From a virus: a DNA stretch of 44,145 bases. Each line of letters starts with the position of its first letter. The first letter of the stretch is position 1. The stretch spans positions 1 to 44,145 of the IMG/VR virus record IMGVR_UViG_3300027963_000116, one strand, 5' to 3'. This document shows, piece after piece, positions 464 to 21,400 of this stretch. Position numbers and translations under genes: made by a program. The notes under the pieces are model-generated. The model ran no database searches. It was not told the DNA's origin and saw only the letters and a list, made by a program, of their open reading frames with translations.

Positions 464-560
464 AACAGTTGCATGGGCAGTATTACTAATGTGTTTAGGT
501 GGGATAGTTGTAGTGGTTGTTGGATTAGCCATAGTAATTTTGTGTAGAGAAGATATATGA
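456..560 (+). CDS. 34-residue single-pass membrane protein
   Basis: This ORF starts with ATG at 456 (AGGAGA at 445-450 upstream) and stops at TGA 558-560. The product is 34 residues: a short N-terminus (MLETVAWA), a continuous hydrophobic stretch of about 22 residues rich in Leu, Val, Ile and Gly, then a short polar tail (CREDI). It overlaps the preceding gene by 8 bases and the next by 4 (ATGA), so it fits the operon exactly with no spare bases. The size and topology suit a small inner-membrane peptide. Possible roles (host membrane modulation, superinfection exclusion) are speculation. Confidence 0.6.
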   Translation: MLETVAWAVLLMCLGGIVVVVVGLAIVILCREDI

Positions 561-1069
561 AGCAACTACTGATTGGGTGCGGGTCACTCAAGAACAAGCG
601 CTTGTCTCTTGACGGCACGAAAGAGTGGGAAGACCTGACAACCCTTGACTACAACACTGACCACAGACCTGATGTAGTTTGGAACTTGATGGAGTTTCCT
701 CTGCCGTTCAAAGACAACAGTTTCGATGAGGTGCACGCTTATGAGGTACTAGAGCACACAGGCGCACAGGGGGACTACAAGTTCTTCTTTGATCAGTTCT
801 CTGAGTTCTGGCGAATCCTTAAACCTGATGGTCACATGTTAGTGACATGCCCATCGCGCCACTCAGCATGGGCATGGGGTGACCCAAGTCACACACGCGT
901 GTTACAGCAAGAACATCTGATATTCCTGAGTCAAGCGGAGTACGACAAGCAGATAGGGCAGACAGCCATGTCTGACTTCAGGAGCATATACAAAGCCGAC
1001 TTCAAAACCATATGGGTGCAAGAGGACGAGAACGCTTTGATGTTTATTGTGAAAGCAATTAAGCCATGA
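557..1069 (+). CDS. SAM-dependent methyltransferase-like protein (class I fold)
   Basis: 170 residues. The N-terminus carries a glycine-rich SAM-binding-like motif (LLIGCGSLKNK, residues 4-14), followed by an acidic pair at the end of strand 2 (LTTLDYN), the typical FDEVHAYEVLEH segment (about 56-67), and a strand 5 stretch (GHMLVTCPSR). This order matches methyltransferase domains of the type 11 kind. The protein is short and lacks a recognisable DNA-target module, so its substrate (DNA base, small molecule, protein) cannot be read from sequence. It is coupled by overlap to genes on both sides. Phages use such enzymes for DNA modification or metabolite methylation; either is inference. Confidence 0.75.
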   Translation: MKQLLIGCGSLKNKRLSLDGTKEWEDLTTLDYNTDHRPDVVWNLMEFPLPFKDNSFDEVHAYEVLEHTGAQGDYKFFFDQFSEFWRILKPDGHMLVTCPSRHSAWAWGDPSHTRVLQQEHLIFLSQAEYDKQIGQTAMSDFRSIYKADFKTIWVQEDENALMFIVKAIKP

Positions 1070-1311
1070 AATGCCCCGAGTGTGGAGCATGGACGATAGT
1101 TAAACAAACAACCAAATCACCCACGTTTGGTTACACCAGAAGGAGAGAGTGCGCTAATGAACACAGATTTACAACCCAAGAAGTCATTGTCCCGCAAGAG
1201 GCAATTGATGAAGAACGAAGAAACCATCTCGCTAATAACCAAGAACGATTGGAATCCTTTCGAGCGAGCCGACCCAAAGCTGTTAGAAAAAGCAATGCAA
1301 GAATCTACTAA
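1066..1311 (+). CDS. NrdR-type zinc-ribbon protein
   Basis: 81 residues. Residues 1-40 closely follow the zinc ribbon of the bacterial regulator NrdR: CPEC at 3-6, then RRREC at 25-29, a histidine at 33 and RFTTQE at 34-39. In NrdR the second pair is Cys-Cys; here it is Cys29/His33 (CxxxH). The ATP-cone domain of NrdR is absent, so this is not a nucleotide-sensing repressor but a stand-alone ribbon with a charged tail. A DNA- or RNA-binding role in transcription control is likely but inferred. The start overlaps the methyltransferase stop by 4 bases, and the second half overlaps another ORF in a different frame. Confidence 0.65.
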   Translation: MKCPECGAWTIVKQTTKSPTFGYTRRRECANEHRFTTQEVIVPQEAIDEERRNHLANNQERLESFRASRPKAVRKSNARIY

Positions 1312-1348
1312 ACAAAGACGTCACGAATTCGAGGACGCACCAATTTAA
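1157..1348 (+). CDS. small hypothetical protein overlapping the zinc-ribbon gene
   Basis: 63 residues in frame 2. I chose ATG 1157 over the longer possible start at 1127 because GAAGGAG at 1139-1145 lies 11 bases upstream. The product is basic at the N-terminus (LQPKKSLSRKRQ) and has a plausible ordered C-terminus (WNPFERADPKLLEKAMQEST). It shares 155 bases with the zinc-ribbon gene in another frame. The protein looks more natural than a chance shadow ORF, and it fills the space to the next intergenic gap. No family recognised. Confidence 0.5.
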   Translation: MNTDLQPKKSLSRKRQLMKNEETISLITKNDWNPFERADPKLLEKAMQESTKQRRHEFEDAPI

Positions 1349-1349
1349 G

Positions 1350-1427
1350 GTCGGAGTATTCATGAAAGCAACGCATGCAAGCCTTGTAGATGCGAACATG
1401 TTTTGCTGGTGGTATAGGTCTCCGACA
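1350..1427 (+). ncRNA. candidate structured RNA element with a 7-bp closing stem
   Basis: GTCGGAG (1350-1356) is perfectly complementary to CTCCGAC (1420-1426). Nested inside are AGCAA with TTGCT, and CGCAT with ATGCG, which could stack as one interrupted helix. The outer span resembles a tRNA in length, but there is no T-arm and no 7-base anticodon loop, so I do not call a tRNA. It could be a cis-acting leader structure for the downstream nuclease gene, or a processed small RNA. The evidence is base-pairing by eye only. Confidence 0.35.
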
Positions 1428-1433
1428 CGATAG
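1362..1433 (+). CDS. possible 23-residue leader peptide
   Basis: ATG 1362 is preceded by CGGAG at 1352-1356 with 5 bases between, a proper ribosome binding site. The ORF ends at TAG 1431-1433. The peptide ends in an aromatic-rich tail, with FCWWYRSPTR as its last ten residues. Its coding sequence lies inside a long inverted repeat (1350-1426), and two more inverted repeats follow before the nuclease gene. That arrangement resembles an attenuation or translation-sensing leader. The ORF is short and may be chance; homologues in related phages would decide. Confidence 0.35.
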   Translation: MKATHASLVDANMFCWWYRSPTR

Positions 1434-1448
1434 AGAACTGCCTATACT
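1411..1448 (+). promoter_or_regulatory. inverted repeat competing with the 1350-1426 stem
   Basis: GGTATAGG at 1411-1418 can pair with CCTATAC at 1441-1447 (7 pairs). The loop of this hairpin contains the 3' arm of the outer stem (1420-1426), so the two structures would exclude each other or form a pseudoknot. Mutually exclusive stems downstream of a short ORF are typical of attenuators, but there is no T-tract here. Inferred from sequence complementarity only. Confidence 0.3.
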
Positions 1449-1468
1449 GCCCGCTCTTAGCCACGATC

Positions 1469-1498
1469 GAGGGGGCGTGGAATCTACATCACCCCCTC
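1469..1498 (+). promoter_or_regulatory. GC-rich hairpin just upstream of the VRR-NUC ribosome binding site
   Basis: GAGGGGG (1469-1475) pairs perfectly with CCCCCTC (1492-1498) around a 16-base loop. The 3' arm ends 8 bases before AAGGA (about 1507-1511), the ribosome binding site of the next gene. No T-run follows, so a classical terminator is unlikely. The hairpin may protect the 5' end of a processed mRNA or tune translation. The rest of the 1349-1515 gap holds the leader ORF and the other inverted repeats. Confidence 0.4.
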
Positions 1499-1515
1499 AC
1501 CATTTAAGGAAACAC

Positions 1516-1809
1516 ATGACACCCGAAGCCAAAGTTAAGAAACAAATCAGGAAGATACTAGACACGACACGCGTGTACTACGCGATGCCGATCGGCACGG
1601 GCTATGGGGCGTCAGGTGTACCAGACTTTCTTGCTTGCTGTGAAGGTAAGTTCATTGGCATCGAAGCCAAGGCAGGCAAGGGAAAGACAACAGCACTACA
1701 AGAACACAACCTACAACGCATTAGAGAGAGTGGAGGATTAATAATAGTTGTAAACGAATTAAACATTAACGAACTAGAGGAATTGATATGCGAAATACAA
1801 AAGAAATGA
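1516..1809 (+). CDS. VRR-NUC domain nuclease
   Basis: 97 residues from ATG 1516, chosen over in-frame ATG 1390 because AAGGA sits just upstream and the extra N-terminal residues look random and cover the inverted repeats. The core GASGVPDFLAC (about 34-44), then GKFIGIEAKAGKGKTTALQ, matches the VRR-NUC branch of the PD-(D/E)XK nucleases: catalytic Asp in PDF, then E-A-K, then a Gln in the following helix. Stand-alone VRR-NUC proteins are common in phages and are thought to be structure-specific or Holliday-junction nucleases. It acts in the host cytoplasm, probably in replication or recombination. It overlaps the next gene by 22 bases. Confidence 0.85.
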   Translation: MTPEAKVKKQIRKILDTTRVYYAMPIGTGYGASGVPDFLACCEGKFIGIEAKAGKGKTTALQEHNLQRIRESGGLIIVVNELNINELEELICEIQKK

Positions 1810-2081
1810 CGAAGGGGGTGCTTGACTTCAACGCCAAGATAGACAAACTCAGCGCAGACCAACGCGAACACCTACGCAAAGCCATTGAGGGGTTAGTCGA
1901 GTGCTGTATAGATGGGACACGGCATGCTGTGGTTGTGTTGGGCAAAGACGATGACCCTCGCGCTGAGGTGCTCACCATTAACTGCAATGAGATGGACGCC
2001 GCCTTTATGCTGAGTTGTTTGACAGAGACATTCATGTCGGCTAACTTAGAAGATGCGCCAGCCAAGGAGAGATTTAATTGA
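1788..2081 (+). CDS. hypothetical protein in replication operon
   Basis: 97 residues. The N-terminal half is helical and charged (FNAKIDKLSADQREHLRKAIEGLVEC); the C-terminal half looks like a small alpha/beta fold (HAVVVLGKDDDPRAEVLTINCNEMDAAFML). No known motif, signal or membrane segment is visible. It overlaps the VRR-NUC gene by 22 bases, and its TGA overlaps a TTG start of the next small gene. Function unknown. Confidence 0.65.
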   Translation: MRNTKEMTKGVLDFNAKIDKLSADQREHLRKAIEGLVECCIDGTRHAVVVLGKDDDPRAEVLTINCNEMDAAFMLSCLTETFMSANLEDAPAKERFN

Positions 2082-2254
2082 CAGTCGAAGAAGAAATACA
2101 GATTCTTAATCTGGCAACTAAGTTGGGCTTGTCCTCTATGTACGAAGCCCCACGCGACACTTACTCAAACTGGCGCACTAAGGTGCTGACGTTTGCACAA
2201 CAAATAATGAAAGAGAAGCATGAGCAAACCATTCGATCAGATATTAACCATTGA
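2078..2254 (+). CDS. 58-residue hypothetical protein with TTG start
   Basis: The gap between the previous gene and the polymerase is filled by an ORF starting TTG at 2078, preceded by AAGGAGA (2064-2070) at good spacing, and ending at TGA 2252-2254. The product begins MTVEEEIQILNLATKLGL and contains YEAPRDTYSNWRTKVLTFAQQ, a plausible small helical protein. Its start overlaps the previous stop (TTGA) and its end overlaps the polymerase start by 35 bases. The rare start codon and strong ribosome binding site make it credible. Function unknown. Confidence 0.55.
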   Translation: MTVEEEIQILNLATKLGLSSMYEAPRDTYSNWRTKVLTFAQQIMKEKHEQTIRSDINH

Positions 2255-4187
2255 CTTCGAGACACGTTGGTCTAAGAAAGACTACACACTATCGAAGTTA
2301 ACAACCGAGGAGTACATTCGTGATAAAAAGTTCATTGCGTTCGGCGCTTGTGTCCATGTATACGGAAGCGGAGACGATATTAGATGGATTAGCGGAAGAG
2401 ACTTACCTGAGTTCTTTTCTGGAGTCGACTGGGGACGAACCGCAGTGCTTGCGCACAACGCACAGTTCGATGTATCCATTATGGAGTGGCGATACAACGC
2501 CCGTCCCGCATTCATCTTCGATACGCTATCAATGGCACGCGCTCTACGAGGCGTGGAAGTTGGAAACTCACTTGCAAAGTTGGCGTACGACTTCGGACTA
2601 CCTGCCAAGGGAACGGCTGTTTATTCAACTGATGGAGTTCACGAGTTGGCCCCTGAGACCGAGCGAGAACTCGCTGAGTACTGCAAACATGATGTGTTTC
2701 TGTGCGAGGAAATATTCAAAAGGTTGGTTGATGCCTATCCATCGAAGGAGCTCAGACTAATCGACATGACGTTGAAGATGTACACACGTCCTCGGCTAGA
2801 ACTTGACCCAAAGATGTTACAGATAGCAATAGAAAAGGAGAAAACAGAACGTGAACAACTACTACAACGCCTTAACATTACAGACGCTGACCTCTCTTCC
2901 AATCCAAAGTTTGCCCAACTACTTGAAACCCTCGGCGTTGCGGCACCGACAAAGGTTAGTAAAACCACTGGCAAGCAGACACTTGCGTTGGCGAAGAATG
3001 ACGCGCTCTTTCAGCAACTCCTCAACAGCCCAGTCGAAGAGGTCAGGCTTCTTTGTGAGGCTCGTCTTAAAGTTAAGTCAACAACTGAGCGCACGAGAGC
3101 AACACGCTTCTATGAAATCAGTCAACGAGGAAAGTTACCAGTACCTCTGTCGTATTACGGGGCGCAGACCGGACGTTGGACTGCAAGCAAGGGCTCCGCA
3201 ATCAACATGCAAAACCTCAAGCGAGGTTCATTCTTACGCAAAGCGATTATGGCTCCCGAAGGGTACAGTCTGGTCGTCGGTGACCTCTCACAAATTGAAC
3301 CGCGAGTACTCGCGTGGCTTTCGGATTACACAGAGATGCTTGACATCTTTCGGGCAGGTGGTGACCCTTATGCCGCGTTCGGTGCGCAGATGTTTAACAT
3401 TTCCGGACTTACTAAGGAATCGCACCCTGACCTACGGCAGTCTGCAAAAAGCGCGCTCTTGGGTTGTGGCTACGGGTTGGGCTGGGCGTCGTTTGCGTCG
3501 CAGTTACTTACGGGCTTCCTTGGTGCTCCGCCGGTTAGGTACAACAGGGACTTTGCGAAGCAACTCGGCGTTGATAAGACGTTTGTAAATAGGTTTGTTG
3601 ACTGGCACGACAGCGAGTCCAAACTGCTAGGCATCCCGCACACCTGTACTGTGGAGGAGTTGCTTGACCACGCCGTTGCCGCAAAGAAGATCATCGACAC
3701 CTACCGCTCTACCGCATACCCTGTGGTGGGGTTCTGGAGCATGTGCTCGGAGTTGTTGGAGAGTGCTTTGGTTAAGGGGCATGAGCACACATACAAGTGT
3801 TTGACATTTAAAAAAGGCGCGATAGAATTACCAAACGGCATGTCTTTGCTGTACCCCAATCTGCGTCAAGTCAAGGACGAAGAAGGCAAGACCAACTGGG
3901 TGTATGGCGAGGACGCAACTAAACTGTACGCTGGCAAGATCACGAATAACGTAACACAAGCGTTGGCGCGTATTGTCATGACGGACGGCATGTTAAGGGT
4001 AGCAAAGAAATACCCAATCGTAGGTACTGTGCATGATGAACTGATTGCACTTGTGCCTGACGAAGAAGTAGAACACGCTAAGACTTGGGTCTTGGCGCAA
4101 ATGACTATGGAGCCAAGTTATATGCGAGGCATCCCATTAGACGCTGACGGTGGCGCCCATCGTAGATACGGAGAAGCAAAACAATGA
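2220..4187 (+). CDS. family A DNA polymerase with 3'-5' exonuclease domain
   Basis: 655 residues; the replicative polymerase of the phage. The N-terminal DEDD exonuclease shows TIDFET (residues 10-15), LAHNAQFD (about 77-84) and YCKHDVFLCEE (about 154-164). The polymerase domain shows motif A VVGDLSQIEPRVLAW (about 352-366), motif B RQSAKSALLGCGYG (406-419) and motif C VHDEL (604-608). No 5'-nuclease domain is present, as in T7-like polymerases. At the position equivalent to E. coli Pol I Phe762 the residue is Leu414, a variant reported to slow synthesis and raise fidelity and tied in metagenomic surveys to slower or temperate-like phages. The gene is coupled by ATGA overlap to the metalloprotease. 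Confidence 0.95.
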   Translation: MSKPFDQILTIDFETRWSKKDYTLSKLTTEEYIRDKKFIAFGACVHVYGSGDDIRWISGRDLPEFFSGVDWGRTAVLAHNAQFDVSIMEWRYNARPAFIFDTLSMARALRGVEVGNSLAKLAYDFGLPAKGTAVYSTDGVHELAPETERELAEYCKHDVFLCEEIFKRLVDAYPSKELRLIDMTLKMYTRPRLELDPKMLQIAIEKEKTEREQLLQRLNITDADLSSNPKFAQLLETLGVAAPTKVSKTTGKQTLALAKNDALFQQLLNSPVEEVRLLCEARLKVKSTTERTRATRFYEISQRGKLPVPLSYYGAQTGRWTASKGSAINMQNLKRGSFLRKAIMAPEGYSLVVGDLSQIEPRVLAWLSDYTEMLDIFRAGGDPYAAFGAQMFNISGLTKESHPDLRQSAKSALLGCGYGLGWASFASQLLTGFLGAPPVRYNRDFAKQLGVDKTFVNRFVDWHDSESKLLGIPHTCTVEELLDHAVAAKKIIDTYRSTAYPVVGFWSMCSELLESALVKGHEHTYKCLTFKKGAIELPNGMSLLYPNLRQVKDEEGKTNWVYGEDATKLYAGKITNNVTQALARIVMTDGMLRVAKKYPIVGTVHDELIALVPDEEVEHAKTWVLAQMTMEPSYMRGIPLDADGGAHRRYGEAKQ

Positions 4188-12449: not shown

Positions 12450-12663
12450 TTGCTTCTTTGTCGCGGGGCTAGACGTAGATGGGATTAGGGAGCGCGGCAT
12501 GTCCGCCGCGCTCCAGTACCGCTACAAGATGAAAGCCACTGTGTGTATCTACGACGGCCTTATCGGGGTGCTATTTCGTCGACTTCCCGGCGGCTTGACG
12601 CGGCTACGGTTATCTTCAACTGACGAACCTCTGACAGACGCTCACGCTTCTCCGCTGGACTAA
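12409..12663 (+). CDS. small hypothetical protein ending the plus-strand arm
   Basis: 84 residues. Residues 1-60 (LKPHDCFFVAGLD...IRERGMSAALQYRYKMKATVCIYDGLIGVLFRRLP) follow a pattern I know from small phage proteins: a FFV strand, a helix with Ala and Tyr, then 'K..TVCI..G..G...RR'. The last 25 residues look random and overlap the C-terminus of the giant minus-strand gene by 104 bases. The gene overlaps the primase-helicase end by 41 bases. No terminator separates the convergent arms. Function unknown; possibly nucleic-acid binding. Confidence 0.6.
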   Translation: MKLIYPLDNLKPHDCFFVAGLDVDGIRERGMSAALQYRYKMKATVCIYDGLIGVLFRRLPGGLTRLRLSSTDEPLTDAHASPLD

Positions 12664-15600
12664 TGTCCATAGCCTGTATGGCTTTCTCAAACTGCGTCAA
12701 CTCTTTCATCTGTGTCGTAAAGTAATCGCCCATCTCCCCCGCCATGTACTCGTTCATGTTTGCTTCCAACAAAGCCATGGCCTCGGCGGCACGTCCTTCA
12801 TTAAACATGTTGTCAACAGTGCGCTGAAGTTTGATAGCGTCCTCGAACCGATCATAGGTAGCGTTAATAATCCCCGCCGCATCATTGGGTTGAAACGCCC
12901 CGCCAATTACAGGTAGTTCAGACAGTCTTGCGGCGGCTTTCTCTGGTGTGTCGCCTTTGGGGATACCAATGCTGACGGCTTGAAGGAACGCTAGTCCCAT
13001 CGTACCGGTATAGCCCTTGACTAACTCCTCCAACATGATAGGAGAAAGACCGCCTGCTTTACCAATCAGTTTGGCGGCTTCAGAAGTGTTAACGCGGAAC
13101 TGTTCTTCTGGCAACAAACCTTTCTCGTGCGCAGACAAAATCTCACGCCCTGTGTAGAACGACTTGCCCAGTCCGTACTCAATCAAAGGCTTAGCCGCCT
13201 GCGGTATGCCATACGACGTGCCTCCGGGAATTGTCTGCAACAAGATTTGCTTAAACGCTTTGACTGCTTCTTCGCCGCCATGTTCGTTCACCATAGAGTT
13301 ATACAACGCTTCTGGTATAGCCTTGAAGATGTAGCCAATCTCAAACGGCACAGGAATACGAATAGGTTCGTCAACTCCGGGGATACGTACAAACCAGTTG
13401 CCATACTTCTGCTCAGGTGTAGCGTTCTTGTAGGCTTCGTCGTCCTGCATCATTGCCGCGTAAGCCAAAGTACTTGCCGCCAACATACCGCCACGTTGCA
13501 ATAACTTCTCTTGTATCTTGAGGCGCTCATTAAATGGCATCTTGCCTGTGAGTGCTTTATACAAGACGTTGAGCGCTTGAATCTGTGCGTTAAAGAACGG
13601 GATTAACGAACCAATAATATGAATACTTGGCTCGGCTCCGCGCTTGTTAAAGTTCATAGACTCCAACGCCATAAGCGTGGCTTCCATCTCAGACAGACCT
13701 TGTGCAATATAACTGTTGTACTGTGCGCGGCGAGTGGTGGCATCTGCCTCCATGTTCAACGCTTCAGCCTTAGCCAACAAGTTCATCCAGCCGGGCTTGC
13801 CGTCGGTTATGTCGCGCAGAATCTTGGTTAAGTCTTCTGATGTGCCAGTAAACACTTGACCGCCAGTAACTCCACGTCGCTCCAACGTCTTCTTGGTGGC
13901 GCTATTAAGTTCTTTCAGCGCTCCCAACACAGGAACAAAGTTAGCGCCAGACAAGATAGGTGCCGCCACGGAGTCACGGAACAACTGCCGCGCCGCGTAC
14001 AGAGGGCTTAGGGTAACGGCTTTACGTAATAATCTTGCGGGCATAGCCAAAAGACGCCATATCGCTGGCATCTGTGTTGGGATACCTGCCATACCTTTGA
14101 CCAACAAATCTCCGGGAATCCCCTCTACACCATCAATGCTGGCGTACATGTCCTTGCCGTCTTTCTTGAACTTAACTACGTTCGGTCCAGAAGTAGCACC
14201 AACAATCTTTGCCATTTGCATGTCAACCAACTCAAACACGGCGTTCTTTGTAGCAAAGTTACGCAAACCCATGTCTGCCAACATGTTGGTGTTCTGCACA
14301 GCGCTGGTCATAAAGTCAAGAATAGGCTTATCACCACCAACTAACTCGTGCAAATATGGTTGCTCGGCAATACTGCCAATACGAATCGGCATTGACTTAC
14401 CAATAATAAGTTCTGCAACGCCATTACGCTCACGATACCAAGGGATGTAGTCGTTCTCTTGCATCAACTCTTTACGAGTGGCTTCAGATATAGCCCCGCT
14501 GTCGGCAACAAACTGCAACATATCACGGTTGTATTCGTTGTACTGTCTACGGGCATCTTCAAAAATGCTTTTGAGTGCTGCGTTCTTATTAACAAACCGT
14601 TCCGCTTTAAGAATGTCCGCTTCGGTTACGTCTTTGTCAAAGTTCAGCGTCTCAAAACCTTTACTCTTAGCGCGAATAGCAGACATGTACGCTGTAAACA
14701 TTCGGTTAACAGCTTCACCATTACCTATATATTTCTTAGCGTCCCGCAAAGTCTCCACTACGCCACGAATACTAGCGCCTTCATTGCTCTCAATGATGTT
14801 TTCTTTTGAGCCGTCCGCACGGGTTTTTTCTATGCGTTTAAGCGCACCATTAGCAACAGCCTGAGAAACAAAATTCATTCGCTGGTCATACATCCGCAAG
14901 TAATACATCATCTGAGCGCCTTGGAGCGGTGCCATGACTTTAGAGATGCGTTCAAACCCAGCAAACCGATCAACAAGTTGTGTCTCTAGCCCAACAAAAC
15001 CACCAGCGGCGGCACGCATTTTTTGAATGCTTGTTTTTTGTTTAGCAACAAATTTGTCAAAGGACACGCTGGCATCACGCGCTTCGTCATTGGCATACTC
15101 AGGCGATACGTATGGGAGTGCTTGATCTTTAAATTCTTGTAACGGCGTATTGCTTTCGTAAATTTCTGACTTAGTAGTTGCTAAGATGTCCTCAGATAGC
15201 GCCACGGCTTCGGCAAATACCGACTGCGCCGCTTTAGCAGGCATGTCAAAAAACTTTGTCATTAACTCAACAAAGCGCGTAAAAATACTCTTGCGTGGTT
15301 TTGTCGACGGTATTTCCACTAACATCTTTTGGAAATCGCGGTCAGAATACAACTCCGACAAAAACTCATCTGCGTTCGTAAGTCCGTAGATTGACTGTCT
15401 GTTACGACCAAGATTCATACTGTGCTGACGATAGTAAGCACGCCCCTGTGGTGTTTCTAACCAAGCAACCACTTGTTTACGTAGTGCCTCTACTTGCTCT
15501 CGTAACTCAGGATTTAATTGCATAGCACGACTTGTAGCCGCGTGTGTTAACTCATGCAACAAAATTTTGTTTGCATTTTTGGCAAATTTTGATGGTGCTC

Positions 15601-18600
15601 GGGTGTAGACAACGTCGTATCTGCTGTTGTACATACCGCCGTAGCGTTGGCGAATGGGGCCGTTAACTGCATACACACGACCGCTACCACCAGCTTCTGG
15701 GGCGGAAGCAAACACTTCACTTAGTTTTTCAAACAGTGCACGTACTTGTGGAGAAGTTGTACGCTCCGCGCCATACTTAGCGGCTTGAGCAAACGTCATT
15801 CCGTGGAACGGGGCAGTCTCATCAAAAGTCGTATCCAGTGCTTTAGCAGATTGCTCTGACGTAAAGTCTTGTGGGTTAATATTTACAGGTTTACGTGCAG
15901 GCATTGCACGGTTGGCAGGTACGGGTGTTGCACGAGGCGCTAAAGTTGCAGGCACACGTTTTGGCTCCGCAAACAAATTGTCCAGCGTGTCAGACAACGA
16001 TTGTGCAATCTCATCTTCAAACAAACCAATGTCTTGGTTAAGCGTTTTTCCTTGCACGCGAGTGCTTGGCTTAGGCGCTTCTTCTGCTTTCTTACCCCGC
16101 GCTTCTTGAGCGGCAAGGTTTGCCAAGCGTTGGTCTTCCCGAGACATCTGTTGATACTCGCGTTCTACTTGTGCTTCTACATCGCCTGTCCTAAACGCTT
16201 TGCGTGCAGACTGTGCCAAAGATGTTTCTGTAGTAGCTGCCGCTTGTTTCTTTTGTGGCTTACCTTCTAAGACGGCTGCCCGTTGGGCTTCCAAAGACTC
16301 AATGTTTTGCAACACGCCTAACTTGGCAAGCGCTTCGTTGCGTTGTTTTGGGCGTGTGTTCTCGTCTTCAGAAAGTTGGCGCAGTGTGTCGCTGTCATTA
16401 GGCAAGTTCTCATACGCGCCTAGTTCAGCAACTAAGTCACCAACTTCTTCGTCAATCTGCTGTAGTTGCAGTTCTTTAATCTCTGCTCTGCGCCGCGCAT
16501 CGTCTGCTTGGTCAGCTTGTTGTCTTGATTGCTTAGCCAACTTATCGAGTTCTTGCTGTTCCAACAACGCTTCTACATCTGTGTAATTCTCTTCAGAAGT
16601 ATCAAGACGTCCAAGCCCAAGCGGTTTAATTTGCGTTTGTAAACGCAACCTAGTGTTGAGCAACTGGTTGATAGCCAACTGGGTTTGGTCAAGGTCCGCC
16701 TCAAGCGCTTTTCTTTCTGGCTTAGTTAGTTTGCCGTCAAGTTGTTTGCGCAGTTCAGTTTGCTTTTTCTCTGCAACAATTAAAGCCGTTTCGGCTTTTG
16801 CTAATTCTTCGCGTTCTTTTTTGTTAAGTTGGCGACGTGTTACAGAAACGCCAAACTCCGCAGTCTGCTTTTTAACTTGTTCTTTGCTGGACTTAATCTT
16901 GTCGTTGGTAGCTTTTTGTTCTTTTTGGATGGCTTCCAGTTGTGCCCGTGCAGCTTTTAAATCGTTACCAAGTTTTTGCTGTGCAAACGGATACTTATAT
17001 GTAACGCCTGCTGTAGCCGTAACTTCCTCGCCACGCAAAGTAGCAAGTTGAGTTTCCAGCGCAACAACTTTCTCAAATATGTTTTGTGTCTTCTTGTCTG
17101 ACACGGCTTGAAGAACTGCGGCGGCGGTGTCGTGTGCCTCTTCCCGCGTCTCCATCATGTCGCTCAAGTCTTTCTCTTGTTCTTGGATTTTCTTCTCCAA
17201 GTCTTCAATGACGGACTTCTTCTCTTCGTAGCGGAACTGCTCGTACGTAGCCAACAACATTCTGTCTTTGCCACTTGGTTGCGCAAGGACATCTTTAACT
17301 TTTTGCTGTACGCGTTCGAGCTCTGCCTTTTGTTTCTCAAGCGTTTCAGCCGCTTTCTTTAAGCCTGCTTGGGCTTTGGCAATCTCCGGGTCAAGAATCT
17401 CTGCCAACGCATCGTCCATGTTTTTGTACGCAGTGTCGTACATTTCCTCCACACGCTGACGATAGGCACTACGCGCTTTATCTGCCTTAACTTCAATCGC
17501 CTTGATCTGCTTCATCAACGGCGTTTCTTTTTTGTTCTTACGTGCCGAGTCTTTAATATGTTCAATAGCCGTTCTAAGCGGAGCCAACTCCCTACGTAAC
17601 TTCTCTGCGCTATCGCGGATGCTTTTGTTTGTATCCTGCATTGTGCGCAACAACTGGTTATCCAGATCGTCTAAACGCTCACCTTGCGCAATTAACTGTT
17701 CGGCTTGTTTTAAATGTTTTTGATACTCAACTAACTTAGTTTCTTGGAAATTGCGCAACAGCTTGCCTATTTGCTTTTTTTCTTTTTCGCTAAAGCCTGC
17801 AAGCGCTTGTGCTTTTTCTGTATCGCTAAGTGGTTTGCTTCCTTTTGTGCGCCCCACGGTTGTTAGATATTTATTAACAAGCGCGGTCTCTTCTGGTGTA
17901 TTGCCTACTTCTGGATACTCGATTGCCGCTTGCGCAAGTTGTTTGTCTGTCCACTTTTTAATGTCTGGGTCAATCCAAAAAAACTTGGTGTCTTTCTTTA
18001 ACAACTCTATGTTTGTTTGGATGCGCCGGATAGTCTCAGCCATCGCCTTACTGCGAGCGGCAACTTTTTGTTCTTTGTCTGCTTTACGCTTAGTTGCAGC
18101 ACGGGCTGCATCCAACGCTTCCCACACCAAACGAATCTTGGGAGAGTTGGCAAAGTTCTTTGGCGACATCCGGATATAACCGATGTCTTCTTCAGTCTCA
18201 GGAAACAAAGACTTCTGCCCTGCTTCTTTTTGCTCTATCGCTGTGGGGGCAAATGCTTTGAGCGCATCTTCAATGTCGCGCTGGTACTCACTCAGCGGTG
18301 CGCGTTCTTCTTCACGGGTAGCCTCTTGCGTTTTGCGACGCTTACCAAACTCGGTATAGCCTTCTTTGCCGGGAACATTACGTACAACACGTTTCTCAGA
18401 GACTGTTTCTTTAGCCCGCACTAACGCAGTGCCGGTGTCTTCCCCACGCATAATGCGCTCAACTTGAGCGTCAACGGCATCCAGCAAATCACGGCTTACT
18501 TGCTTGTCTTTAATATTTTCGGAGGCTTGGTCAAGGACATTTACGCCTTGGCTGTTTACCTCTTTCATGGTGCCGTCTTCAACCGCTGTCTGCACGCGGT

Positions 18601-21400
18601 CGTAGAAGTCCTGCGCTTTTACGCTACCAGCAATAGCATCGCGGGCTTTCTCCAATAACTCACGCATATCCTCAACGCGGTACACATAAGGCTGTCCGTT
18701 TTGCACACCTTCGTAAATGCCACCTTGTGGCAAATCTCCACGAGCTAACACTTTTTCAAGATTGGTTAGTGTGTACTCACTACGACGACGAAGTTCACCG
18801 CCTAATGTTTTGGCTGTCTCACCCTTGGCTTCCGCTACTTTCTTGGCTTCAGTCTCAGGGAACTGTGTCTTGAGGAAAGACTCTTGGCGTGTAGTTTTGC
18901 TGGGTGTTTCCCATAAGTTACGACGTGTGGTATCAAGTTGCTCTTTCAATACAGCAACAGCTTGTGGGTAGGCACCAAACCGATACTCTTCAATCGGACG
19001 CTCATCAAATACACGGCGTTGTTCGTAACGGGCTTGGCGAATTAACTTGTGTGCACGCAGTTGCGCTGGCTCAACCAACACACTCTCCATCGTGTTGCGT
19101 TGGGGTTCTTTCTGAACGCGGTCAATCCACTCGTTCAAGGTGTCATACATTTCAGACGCGGCTTTAATGGCCTCATCTTTTGTTAACGGGACTTTGCCCT
19201 CAGCACGGCGGTGCGTAGCCGCTTCTTTTAGTGCGGCTTGAATGTATTGCGAACGCATACGCGCCGCTTGATTGGTCAAAGACTGCGTCGTTGACGCCGC
19301 CATTTCATCTTTACCAAGTGTTTGACCACGACGTAGTTTGTCAGCAATATCTTCTAGGTTGTTTAGCGCAAAGTTCTGTTGTTGACGCAGTTTAAGAACC
19401 TCTTTAGCGTACGGGCTGCCGCTCTCCGACATGCTGGTCAGGCGATCTATGGCGGCGTTGCCACGCTCAAATGCTTCTTTAGCCGCTAAAGGTGCTTGCT
19501 GTTGCCCAGCCAATCCTGTCCCATAGCCTTTAGGTGCTTTGCCTTTCAGTGCGTTTGCGTAGTCTGTGTCGGCTTGGTCGGCCTCTTGCAACAGTTCTTC
19601 TACGCGTTGACGGATTTGTGGTGCCTTACGCACAGAGTCGGCGGTTGCTTTAACTTCGTTGTTGATCTCAATGGTTGGTTCTTTGCCGCCCATCGCAGAC
19701 GTAAACATGTCGTTGAGGTAGTCAAAGTTTGTCTCGGCAGTAGCGCGATGCTCCTCAACCTGTTGTTCAGAAGCAAGATAGCGCTCCAGTGGGTCAGGCT
19801 TAGGTTGTACTTGCTGGGCTTTGAAGTCTTCTGTACGCTGGGCAAGTTCTGCCTTGGACTCCGCTTGGGCTGCTTTCTCTCGATCACGCAAGTTAAGTCT
19901 TAGCCCATCAAACACAGCTTTCTGGGCTTGGTTGTCCAGTCCGGGCAACACTGGGCGTTGCTGTAACGTCTGCGCCGCCATCGTGGGGTCTTGCATCAGG
20001 TAGTCAACGTAGTCTTTTACATCAAGTTGTCCCATGCTGCGGGCAGCATCAAGCTGTCCTGTGGCGTAGTCTGTTACGCGTGTATCTGGCGCTGGTGCCT
20101 CCGGCACTTCGTTGATGCCCAACGCACCTTTCATCCGCCCACCCGTAGGAGCAGGCGCGGCTTCACGACCACCCTGCATAGTCTGCTCCAGCATGTATTC
20201 CTCTGGAGACAGTTTCTCAACCCGTTGCTGCTCTTGAACTTGTGCCACTAAAGGCTTGACACGTTTGTACTCAGGGGTGTCGGCAAACAATCCCTTGCGT
20301 AGATCGGTCAGTTCATCTCTGCGCTGTTTAAGTTCGTACTCTTGCTCTGGTGTAGCGTCTTTAATCTTTTTGGGTAACGCCTGTAGTTCTTTGACTTTGG
20401 CTAAGCGGTCTTCGTAGTCTTGAGCAAACGTCAGCAAGTAGTCAGGAGACTGGCGTTTAAGGTCTTCGGCTTCTTTCTCAGCCCGTGCTTCCTCAGTACG
20501 TTTCTTAACGGCTGTTTGTTCTTCTTTGCCTTGCTGTGCACCGCGCTCAACGTAACGACCGGCAGGGGCTAAAACACCACCAAGAACAGCGCCCCCAATT
20601 AAAGAGTCCAAATACTCGCTACGAGCTTTCTCATCTGTCAGGTTAAGTCCCGCTTGCATGCGCTCAAAGAACTGTTGACCTGCCTCGGTCAAACCCTCAG
20701 CGCTCATAGCCTTGCCTGTAGCAAGCGCGTAATCTTTGGCTATCTGGGCTGTGCCTTGCTTGGCAATCTCAATAGCGGCTTTCTCTGGGACTTCTTTGCC
20801 AGCAGCCGCAAATATGCCACGAATCCCCGGAGCCATTCTGAATGACACCATATCTAGCGCGGCTTGTGGAAGAGCGGCGGCAGCGGCGTAACCTAAGTTA
20901 GTCTGCCCTAGTTTCTTGCCCTCGTCCATTTGACGAGATAGGTTTGAGCCAGTGAACTGCGTTAGTGATGCTAAGCCAGCAGCACCAATGGCGGGGAGGC
21001 CCGCAGGAGCCAAAACACCAGCGGCAAGCGGAGCCGCCATATAGGGCAGCGAGCCGCCTAGTAATTCTTTGGTTTTTGTAAATGGCGCTTCAAGAAAACT
21101 TTCTTCGGTAGGCTTGAACGTTTTCTTTTTGTATTCTTCTTGTTCTTTGATGTACTTTTCGGCATTAGCCTCATCCATCAAGCCGGTACGTCCTGCCAGC
21201 GCGGCAACGTCGCCTTTTAGTCCGGCTAAACCTGCTTTAGAAGCAGCAATAAATCCGCCTTGGGGTTGTTCTTGAGGTGCGGTTTTAACACCAAAAGCCT
21301 CCGGATACATCTGCTGTGCCCGCAACCACGTATCAGCGGGAGTCTCGCCCTCCCTAATAGTTACGTATCTACCGTCTGGTAAAGGGAGCGCTTGTGGCAT
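12560..21400 (-). CDS. giant 2946-residue virion/ejection-type protein with metallopeptidase motif
   Basis: It starts at ATG 21400 (TAGGA upstream). The N-terminus (LPDGRYVTIREGETPADTW) is a short fold seen at the start of large phage proteins. Residues about 110-300 include Gly/Ala-rich hydrophobic stretches that could insert in membranes. About 1100-1800 is Lys/Glu/Gln-rich and probably coiled coil. HELTH at 1949-1953 marks a zinc metallopeptidase domain. Residues about 2100-2800 (for example FFNAQIQALNVLYKAL, PFEIGYIFKAIPEAL) resemble the C-terminal associated domains of phage polyvalent proteins (LPD38-like, from memory). It is last in the virion arm, like internal ejection proteins. Injection with the genome and host-defence or peptidoglycan roles are inferred. 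Confidence 0.8.
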   Translation of the reverse strand: MPQALPLPDGRYVTIREGETPADTWLRAQQMYPEAFGVKTAPQEQPQGGFIAASKAGLAGLKGDVAALAGRTGLMDEANAEKYIKEQEEYKKKTFKPTEESFLEAPFTKTKELLGGSLPYMAAPLAAGVLAPAGLPAIGAAGLASLTQFTGSNLSRQMDEGKKLGQTNLGYAAAAALPQAALDMVSFRMAPGIRGIFAAAGKEVPEKAAIEIAKQGTAQIAKDYALATGKAMSAEGLTEAGQQFFERMQAGLNLTDEKARSEYLDSLIGGAVLGGVLAPAGRYVERGAQQGKEEQTAVKKRTEEARAEKEAEDLKRQSPDYLLTFAQDYEDRLAKVKELQALPKKIKDATPEQEYELKQRRDELTDLRKGLFADTPEYKRVKPLVAQVQEQQRVEKLSPEEYMLEQTMQGGREAAPAPTGGRMKGALGINEVPEAPAPDTRVTDYATGQLDAARSMGQLDVKDYVDYLMQDPTMAAQTLQQRPVLPGLDNQAQKAVFDGLRLNLRDREKAAQAESKAELAQRTEDFKAQQVQPKPDPLERYLASEQQVEEHRATAETNFDYLNDMFTSAMGGKEPTIEINNEVKATADSVRKAPQIRQRVEELLQEADQADTDYANALKGKAPKGYGTGLAGQQQAPLAAKEAFERGNAAIDRLTSMSESGSPYAKEVLKLRQQQNFALNNLEDIADKLRRGQTLGKDEMAASTTQSLTNQAARMRSQYIQAALKEAATHRRAEGKVPLTKDEAIKAASEMYDTLNEWIDRVQKEPQRNTMESVLVEPAQLRAHKLIRQARYEQRRVFDERPIEEYRFGAYPQAVAVLKEQLDTTRRNLWETPSKTTRQESFLKTQFPETEAKKVAEAKGETAKTLGGELRRRSEYTLTNLEKVLARGDLPQGGIYEGVQNGQPYVYRVEDMRELLEKARDAIAGSVKAQDFYDRVQTAVEDGTMKEVNSQGVNVLDQASENIKDKQVSRDLLDAVDAQVERIMRGEDTGTALVRAKETVSEKRVVRNVPGKEGYTEFGKRRKTQEATREEERAPLSEYQRDIEDALKAFAPTAIEQKEAGQKSLFPETEEDIGYIRMSPKNFANSPKIRLVWEALDAARAATKRKADKEQKVAARSKAMAETIRRIQTNIELLKKDTKFFWIDPDIKKWTDKQLAQAAIEYPEVGNTPEETALVNKYLTTVGRTKGSKPLSDTEKAQALAGFSEKEKKQIGKLLRNFQETKLVEYQKHLKQAEQLIAQGERLDDLDNQLLRTMQDTNKSIRDSAEKLRRELAPLRTAIEHIKDSARKNKKETPLMKQIKAIEVKADKARSAYRQRVEEMYDTAYKNMDDALAEILDPEIAKAQAGLKKAAETLEKQKAELERVQQKVKDVLAQPSGKDRMLLATYEQFRYEEKKSVIEDLEKKIQEQEKDLSDMMETREEAHDTAAAVLQAVSDKKTQNIFEKVVALETQLATLRGEEVTATAGVTYKYPFAQQKLGNDLKAARAQLEAIQKEQKATNDKIKSSKEQVKKQTAEFGVSVTRRQLNKKEREELAKAETALIVAEKKQTELRKQLDGKLTKPERKALEADLDQTQLAINQLLNTRLRLQTQIKPLGLGRLDTSEENYTDVEALLEQQELDKLAKQSRQQADQADDARRRAEIKELQLQQIDEEVGDLVAELGAYENLPNDSDTLRQLSEDENTRPKQRNEALAKLGVLQNIESLEAQRAAVLEGKPQKKQAAATTETSLAQSARKAFRTGDVEAQVEREYQQMSREDQRLANLAAQEARGKKAEEAPKPSTRVQGKTLNQDIGLFEDEIAQSLSDTLDNLFAEPKRVPATLAPRATPVPANRAMPARKPVNINPQDFTSEQSAKALDTTFDETAPFHGMTFAQAAKYGAERTTSPQVRALFEKLSEVFASAPEAGGSGRVYAVNGPIRQRYGGMYNSRYDVVYTRAPSKFAKNANKILLHELTHAATSRAMQLNPELREQVEALRKQVVAWLETPQGRAYYRQHSMNLGRNRQSIYGLTNADEFLSELYSDRDFQKMLVEIPSTKPRKSIFTRFVELMTKFFDMPAKAAQSVFAEAVALSEDILATTKSEIYESNTPLQEFKDQALPYVSPEYANDEARDASVSFDKFVAKQKTSIQKMRAAAGGFVGLETQLVDRFAGFERISKVMAPLQGAQMMYYLRMYDQRMNFVSQAVANGALKRIEKTRADGSKENIIESNEGASIRGVVETLRDAKKYIGNGEAVNRMFTAYMSAIRAKSKGFETLNFDKDVTEADILKAERFVNKNAALKSIFEDARRQYNEYNRDMLQFVADSGAISEATRKELMQENDYIPWYRERNGVAELIIGKSMPIRIGSIAEQPYLHELVGGDKPILDFMTSAVQNTNMLADMGLRNFATKNAVFELVDMQMAKIVGATSGPNVVKFKKDGKDMYASIDGVEGIPGDLLVKGMAGIPTQMPAIWRLLAMPARLLRKAVTLSPLYAARQLFRDSVAAPILSGANFVPVLGALKELNSATKKTLERRGVTGGQVFTGTSEDLTKILRDITDGKPGWMNLLAKAEALNMEADATTRRAQYNSYIAQGLSEMEATLMALESMNFNKRGAEPSIHIIGSLIPFFNAQIQALNVLYKALTGKMPFNERLKIQEKLLQRGGMLAASTLAYAAMMQDDEAYKNATPEQKYGNWFVRIPGVDEPIRIPVPFEIGYIFKAIPEALYNSMVNEHGGEEAVKAFKQILLQTIPGGTSYGIPQAAKPLIEYGLGKSFYTGREILSAHEKGLLPEEQFRVNTSEAAKLIGKAGGLSPIMLEELVKGYTGTMGLAFLQAVSIGIPKGDTPEKAAARLSELPVIGGAFQPNDAAGIINATYDRFEDAIKLQRTVDNMFNEGRAAEAMALLEANMNEYMAGEMGDYFTTQMKELTQFEKAIQAMDISPAEKRERLSEVRQLKITVAASSRREVDEIAPR

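What the first reader, a model, noticed from the sequence alone, without database searches (positions are those of the whole stretch)
1349..1515. Leader ORF inside competing inverted repeats before the VRR-NUC gene: possible attenuator or new structured RNA
Seen directly: a 23-codon ORF with a good ribosome binding site and an aromatic-rich end (FCWWYRSPTR). It lies inside a 7-bp stem (1350-1356 with 1420-1426). A second stem (1411-1418 with 1441-1447) would exclude the first, and a third GC-rich hairpin (1469-1475 with 1492-1498) sits next to the downstream ribosome binding site. This is the only sizeable gap in the plus arm. Ribosome position on the short ORF could decide which stem forms; that part is inference.
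Basis: partly seen in the sequence, partly recalled or inferred. Interest (0 to 1): 0.62.

Follow-up and report, generated by a model that had tools for sequence, protein, structure and literature searches.

The report
New pseudoknotted RNA class in phages
The gap before a phage DNA-junction-cutting enzyme gene does not hold a tiny leader gene but an undescribed, intricately knotted RNA of about 150 letters, found in over a hundred uncultured, mostly aquatic phage sequences and matching no known RNA family; what it does is still open.

Summary
The stems are real, but the attenuator reading is wrong. Window 1349-1500 is one copy of an undescribed structured RNA. In 66 divergent sequences 92% of pair cells form standard pairs (67% shuffled; 39-48% slid), and 37 of 45 pairs show two-sided changes. 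The two stems called mutually exclusive share no base and are both conserved. The 23-codon ORF is not conserved. Over 100 IMG/VR contigs carry the RNA, one copy per record. It matches no Rfam family and none of 50,697 named phage records. In 53 of 59 non-redundant pattern-found cases a VRR-NUC (Holliday-junction-resolvase-fold) gene lies downstream within 3 kb. But the RNA also occurs at a convergent operon end, beside RusA, upstream of a promoter-like site, and in one Rhodoferax MAG contig, and related phages lack it between the same two genes. That points to a discrete accessory RNA module rather than a simple leader. Confidence: conserved structured RNA about 0.97; autonomous RNA about 0.5; cis-regulator about 0.3. 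Function is untested.

The parts
1349..1500 (+). whole structured RNA element (model match 1339-1503)
   Evidence: covariance models R1/R2 built on 34 homologues; 66 divergent homologues, E 1e-48 to 6e-6. The window itself is in the training set
1350..1356 (+). P1 5' strand (GUCGGAG), begins just after the stop codon of the upstream ORF
   Evidence: pairs 1420-1426; all 8 model pairs have two-sided changes
1420..1426 (+). P1 3' strand (CUCCGAC), lies inside the loop of P3, so P1 and P3 cross
   Evidence: alignment-free test p<=0.05 in 47 of 63 sequences
1368..1377 (+). P2 5' strand (pairs 1368-1371 and 1374-1377)
   Evidence: pairs 1397-1406; 86-92% of cells paired in 66 sequences
1397..1406 (+). 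P2 3' strand
   Evidence: strongest unsupervised covariation signal, alignment columns 44-68
1381..1393 (+). conserved apical loop GCCUnGUAGAUG of P2; holds the 5' strand of helix C
   Evidence: 91-100% conserved at most positions; GUAGAU itself was part of the search pattern for most loci
1385..1391 (+).
   Evidence: pairs 1482-1488; U-A/A-U/G-U swaps in the outer pair; G-C to A-U double change in 14 contigs and in protein-found L074/L080
1482..1488 (+). C 3' strand (AUCUACA)
   Evidence: as above
1408..1418 (+). P3 5' strand
   Evidence: pairs 1441-1451; 11 of 11 pairs with two-sided changes, 95% of cells paired on the alignment fitted to it, 63% on the one not fitted
1441..1451 (+). P3 3' strand
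   Evidence: as above
1461..1465 (+). A 5' strand (CCACG)
   Evidence: pairs 1476-1480; 98% paired on an alignment not fitted to it, with two-sided changes
1476..1480 (+). A 3' strand (CGUGG)
1469..1475 (+). B 5' strand (GAGGGGG); crosses A
   Evidence: pairs 1492-1498; 97% paired on an alignment not fitted to it, with two-sided changes
1492..1498 (+). B 3' strand (CCCCCUC), 3' end of the RNA core
1362..1433 (+).
   Evidence: not conserved
1516..1809 (+). neighbouring VRR-NUC/Hjc-type nuclease gene (Holliday-junction resolvase fold), linked to the RNA but not required by it
   Evidence: PHROG_93 E 6e-15, Foldseek to VRR_NUC 4qbo/4qbn TM 0.72-0.75; linkage

Best explanation
Shown: the gap encodes a member of an undescribed class of conserved, multi-pseudoknotted phage RNA of about 150 nt. 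A P2 hairpin loop (CUnGUAGAU) kisses the linker of an H-type pseudoknot (A x B), and most members add a second pseudoknot (P1 x P3). The + strand is the RNA. Inferred: it is transcribed as part of the early replication/recombination operon, folds on its own, and works as a discrete accessory RNA module (trans-acting, possibly protein-bound) rather than as an attenuator or simple leader of the next gene. Further inference: the nearly invariant core (GCCU-GUAGAUG, CGA, AAUCUAC) is the site that contacts a partner, most plausibly a phage or host nucleic-acid enzyme. The confidence given is for the autonomous-module step; that it is a conserved structured RNA I hold at about 0.97.
For: Structure: 45 pairs in 66 sequences, 91.8% of cells paired vs 67.3 +/- 0.6 shuffled, covariation score 0.576 vs 0.155, 0/500 shuffles, slides 39-48%. 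Cross-check on an alignment fitted to other helices: 87.0% vs 68.2 +/- 0.5. G-U exceeds A-C (P2 23:3, P3 47:16, A 5:1), which favours the + strand as the RNA. Helix C compensatory variant in 14 contigs. Module nature: clean presence/absence between the same two genes (L104 vs L107, L088 vs L091), one significant copy per carrying record, other genes inserted between RNA and VRR-NUC in L007, L029 and others. Not tied to a downstream gene: L179/L205 convergent lysin gene, stop codon at helix B; L242 beside divergent RusA; conserved TTGACA-16-TATnAT promoter-like site between RNA and VRR-NUC start in the L177/L282 group; Rhodoferax MAG contig between MerR and VIT/VWA genes. SD sequestration not supported.
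Against: 53 of 59 non-redundant elements have VRR-NUC downstream on the same strand within 3 kb, 40 of them directly, and element presence needs only 4 changes on the VRR-NUC tree against 7 on the polA tree; both fit a cis role or a dedicated partnership. No promoter or terminator of its own was found (a sigma-70 consensus scan only). No transcript data. The promoter in the L177 group is a consensus match, not shown to work.
Confidence: 0.5

Rival explanations
1. Cis-regulatory leader of the recombination operon: the pseudoknot fold binds a metabolite or, more specifically, the junction-binding resolvase encoded downstream, and this sets translation of VRR-NUC (autogenous control).
For: Directional linkage to VRR-NUC in 53/59 cases, usually 19-34 nt from the RNA's 3' end to the next start codon; co-inheritance with one VRR-NUC subfamily; resolvase fold of the neighbour; of ten records that carry the RNA but no VRR-NUC, seven encode RusA and the other three are short fragments.
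Against: 40 of 74 VRR-NUC-bearing polA-found loci show no element in the DNA held (some truncated), and a close VRR-NUC relative in the same gene context lacks it (L091); L179 has no co-directional downstream gene; the pyrimidine linker shows no cognate pairing with the Shine-Dalgarno (11.12 vs 11.05 +/- 0.25 shuffled); no terminator. Short spacing may only reflect compact genomes.
Confidence: 0.3
2. mRNA-processing element: a self-cleaving ribozyme, or an RNase-resistant or RNase-cut structure that sets operon mRNA ends or stability.
For: Highly conserved unpaired residues in a pseudoknot fold; sits right after an upstream stop codon and before a start codon.
Against: No Rfam ribozyme match; no obvious cleavage site; at about 150 nt it is larger than the 50-80 nt that PMC10085705 expected of self-cleaving ribozymes.
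Confidence: 0.12
3. DNA-level element (replication origin or recombination site) whose inverted repeats only look like RNA structure.
For: Lies in the replication/recombination region; single copy.
Against: G-U/A-C asymmetry points to the + strand RNA; crossing helices with G-U pairs are unexpected for a DNA site; absent from many close relatives.
Confidence: 0.04
4. Leader-peptide attenuator.
For: An ORF with a ribosome-binding-site-like sequence exists in the window clade.
Against: ORF not conserved; stems share no bases and both are conserved; no terminator at the site.
Confidence: 0.01

Closest known systems
Pseudoknotted riboswitches (e.g. preQ1, SAM-II)
   Same: H-type pseudoknot with conserved core near a start codon
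   Different: two crossed pseudoknot systems plus a kissing helix, no Rfam match, present with no co-directional gene downstream (L179), no pairing with the SD
Self-cleaving ribozymes with pseudoknots (HDV-like, pistol, twister)
   Same: compact pseudoknot core with invariant residues, occurrence in phages
   Different: helix order differs from those I recall for HDV and pistol; no Rfam match; cleavage untested
ToxI-type RNA antitoxins and Racr RNA anti-CRISPRs (PMC10651486)
   Same: short accessory RNA modules of phages and bacteria
   Different: not repeated; GUAGAU precedes AUCUAC by about 100 nt, the reverse order and spacing of a Cas12a repeat (from memory); no toxin gene identified next to it
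Candidate structured RNAs from metagenomes (PMC2864571, PMC10085705, PMC8040213)
   Same: kind of discovery: conserved RNA in uncultured sequences
   Different: no Rfam match; not found in the papers searched, though most subscription papers and all supplements were out of reach

Membership tests
Leader-peptide attenuator | conserved leader ORF | tested here: not met
   ORF only in the window clade; shortened or absent elsewhere (L003 18 codons, L008 group 8 codons, sequences)
Leader-peptide attenuator | mutually exclusive hairpins | tested here: not met
   no shared bases; both helices conserved in the same RNAs
Leader-peptide attenuator | intrinsic terminator before the gene | tested here: not met
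   no + strand terminator-like site at 1349-1515
Riboswitch / cis leader | lies in the 5' leader of a co-directional gene in all members | tested here: not met
   L179/L205: next gene convergent; the rule holds for most other members
Riboswitch / cis leader | recognisable expression platform (SD or terminator control) | tested here: not met
   for SD pairing with the linker; for terminator. Other platforms not tested
Riboswitch / cis leader | ligand binding | not testable with these tools
   needs in-line probing
Any Rfam 15 family | match above gathering score | tested here: not met
   (window and ten loci); weak-threshold scans gave only chance-level matches
tRNA / tmRNA | ARAGORN model | tested here: not met
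Self-cleaving ribozyme | self-cleavage | not testable with these tools
   needs in vitro transcription
Conserved structured RNA (general) | covariation in helices the alignment was not fitted to | tested here: met
   and the helix C variant
VRR-NUC nuclease (neighbour) | VRR-NUC/Hjc fold | tested here: met
   (Pfam VRR_NUC and Hjc only below cut-off for the window protein)

The most novel reading that the evidence does not exclude
The RNA is a dedicated partner or mimic for junction-resolving enzymes: a folded RNA, carried by phages with VRR-NUC/Hjc or RusA resolvases, that imitates a branched nucleic acid to control a resolvase (its own or the host's), that is, an RNA regulator or inhibitor of Holliday-junction resolution. 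No such RNA is known to me.
Probability: 0.15. Interest if true: 0.93.

Novelty: categorically new. Interest (0 to 1): 0.8.

Why it matters
A widespread RNA class with crossing helices and a nearly invariant core has gone unseen because it occurs almost only in uncultured phages and is absent from Rfam and from 50,697 named phage records. Such conservation in compact phage genomes implies strong selection. It offers a directly testable RNA (about 150 nt, two covariance models, over 100 sequences) and may reveal a ligand sensor, an RNA partner of recombination enzymes, an RNA counter-defence, or a ribozyme.

Tried and rejected
Leader-peptide attenuator: ORF not conserved. SD sequestration by the conserved UCC linker: cognate pairing no better than shuffled. 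Known RNA families: Rfam at gathering and weak thresholds, tRNA/tmRNA. Named phages: window 500-3000 and a concatenation of 18 variants, no match. Bacterial hosts: only the Rhodoferax MAG among 301 family and 399 phylum genomes; the second genome-contig hit (L271) was judged chance because it lacks the stems. Control patterns with other helix C pairs: GTGGAT/ATCCAC hit only what looks like a coding region and no RNA model match, GTAGAC/GTCTAC nothing, so the inner pairs look sequence-constrained, within the pattern tested. Cas12a-repeat mimicry: strand order and spacing wrong (considered from memory). The polA-tree comparison is weak support for an RNA/VRR-NUC unit, because neighbouring genes are inherited together. 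Literature searches found no description.

Full report
What was checked. The gap at 1349-1515 of a 44 kb uncultured phage contig (the window is a virus record) lies between a small ORF ending at 1348 and a 97-codon nuclease gene at 1516. Read alone the RNA folds only mildly better than shuffles (z about -2.1 for 1346-1515; -1.7 for 1350-1498), so I turned to relatives.

Relatives. The nuclease protein found 80 IMG/VR loci and polA found more. Upstream of most nuclease genes sat the same core, GCAAGCCTwGTAGATG ... CCrCGA..GAGGGGGCGyGGAATCTAC..CCCCCTC, in otherwise diverged gaps. With model R2, 76 of the 81 sources (window and 80 nuclease-found loci) carry it, one of them cut off. A minority of pattern hits are plain chance matches in coding sequence.

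Structure. An alignment of 34 sequences gave six helices, with the best unsupervised covariation in P2 and A. Models R1 (P1, P2, A) and R2 (P2, P3, B) were built so that each could test helices that the other had been fitted to. All 66 chosen sequences match both. On the R2 alignment 91.8% of cells pair (67.3 shuffled), and the unfitted helices P1, A and C pair at 69, about 98 and 99%. On the R1 alignment 87.0% pair, and the unfitted P3, B and C pair at 63, 97 and 99%. Slides fall to 39-52%. Shuffle counts do not correct for relatedness, so I rely also on the slides, on the alignment-free test (P1 p<=0.05 in 47 of 63 sequences, P3 in 54 of 63) and on the helix C variants.

Ascertainment. Most loci were found with GTAGAT and AATCTAC fixed, so invariance of C is partly built in. 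But L074 and L080, found by protein, carry AATAGAT/ATCTATT; a search for that double change found 14 contigs, all of which match the RNA model; and the outer pair swaps U-A, A-U and G-U. C is therefore supported by compensatory change at two of its seven pairs.

Strand. G-U exceeds A-C in P2, P3 and A, as expected if the + strand is the RNA; P1 counts are blurred by misalignment.

Variants. The L021/L165/L027/L243 group shows no clear P1 and L024 lacks P1 and P3. P2, A, B and C are the common core. Nearly invariant positions are G1381-U1384, G1386-G1392, A1466, A1481 and A1482-C1487 among others. A plain fold also closes the apical loop with G1381-C1393 and C1382-G1392 in the window.

P1 and P3 share no base and are conserved together, so they form a pseudoknot rather than a switch. 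The ORF is broken or absent in relatives. No terminator-like site lies on the + strand there.

Context. Of 59 non-redundant pattern-found elements with VRR-NUC found or at least 1.5 kb held downstream, 53 have a VRR-NUC gene downstream on the same strand within 3 kb, 40 of them within 150 nt, none upstream. The neighbour has the VRR-NUC/Hjc resolvase fold (compare PMC4103454, whose abstract states that stand-alone VRR-Nuc structures resemble Holliday-junction resolvases). Exceptions matter: L179 and relatives end an operon against a convergent M15 peptidase gene; L242 lies beside divergent RusA; L216 has a RecA-dependent-nuclease-family gene nearby; a Rhodoferax MAG contig has it between MerR and VIT/VWA genes. 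Of ten records without VRR-NUC seven carry RusA, but RusA is common in phages, so this is only suggestive. In the L177/L282 group a TTGACA-16 nt-TATnAT site lies between the RNA and the VRR-NUC start.

Gain and loss. Records carry one significant copy or none (25 of 40; G034 has one further marginal hit). L104/L107 and L088/L091 show the element present or absent between the same genes. On the VRR-NUC tree presence needs 4 changes, on the polA tree 7, against about 24 shuffled; linked inheritance could produce this.

Function. I commit to an autonomous accessory RNA module (about 0.5) over a cis leader (about 0.3) because of the exceptions above and because no expression platform was found: pairing of the linker with the Shine-Dalgarno is no better than shuffled. 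The partner is unknown. All mechanism steps are inference.

Novelty. No Rfam family, no named phage, and no paper found. The paper library is partial, so a description in a subscription journal or supplement cannot be excluded.

Noticed in passing
window 1066-1311 and 1208-1348: Two overlapping same-strand ORFs: an NrdR-like Zn-ribbon protein and a small ORF ending in ...DPKLLEKAMQESTKQRRHEFEDAPI whose relatives seem to precede the RNA in L063 and VRR-NUC in L111.
   Followed up: partly
L007 3872-4398 (and L154): A gene resembling an HNH/AP2-type homing endonuclease lies between the RNA and VRR-NUC in the window's close relative; judged by eye, not by a family search.
   Followed up: no
L176, L177, L182, L211, L225, L261, L272-L282, between the RNA and the VRR-NUC start: Conserved TTGACA-16-TGnTATnAT promoter-like site with a dyad directly at the VRR-NUC start and no Shine-Dalgarno: possibly a leaderless mRNA.
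   Followed up: partly
L270 3211-3374 (Rhodoferax MAG contig JARXAU010000016.1): The only copy seen outside viral contigs, between MerR and VIT/VWA genes; could be bacterial, a prophage remnant or a binning error.
   Followed up: partly
window 12560-21400, minus strand: A 2946-codon ORF, very large for a 44 kb phage contig; not examined.
   Followed up: no
L021, L165, L027, L243 and L024: Subgroup without a clear P1 x P3 pseudoknot, and L024 without P1 and P3: natural minimal forms useful for bench work.
   Followed up: partly
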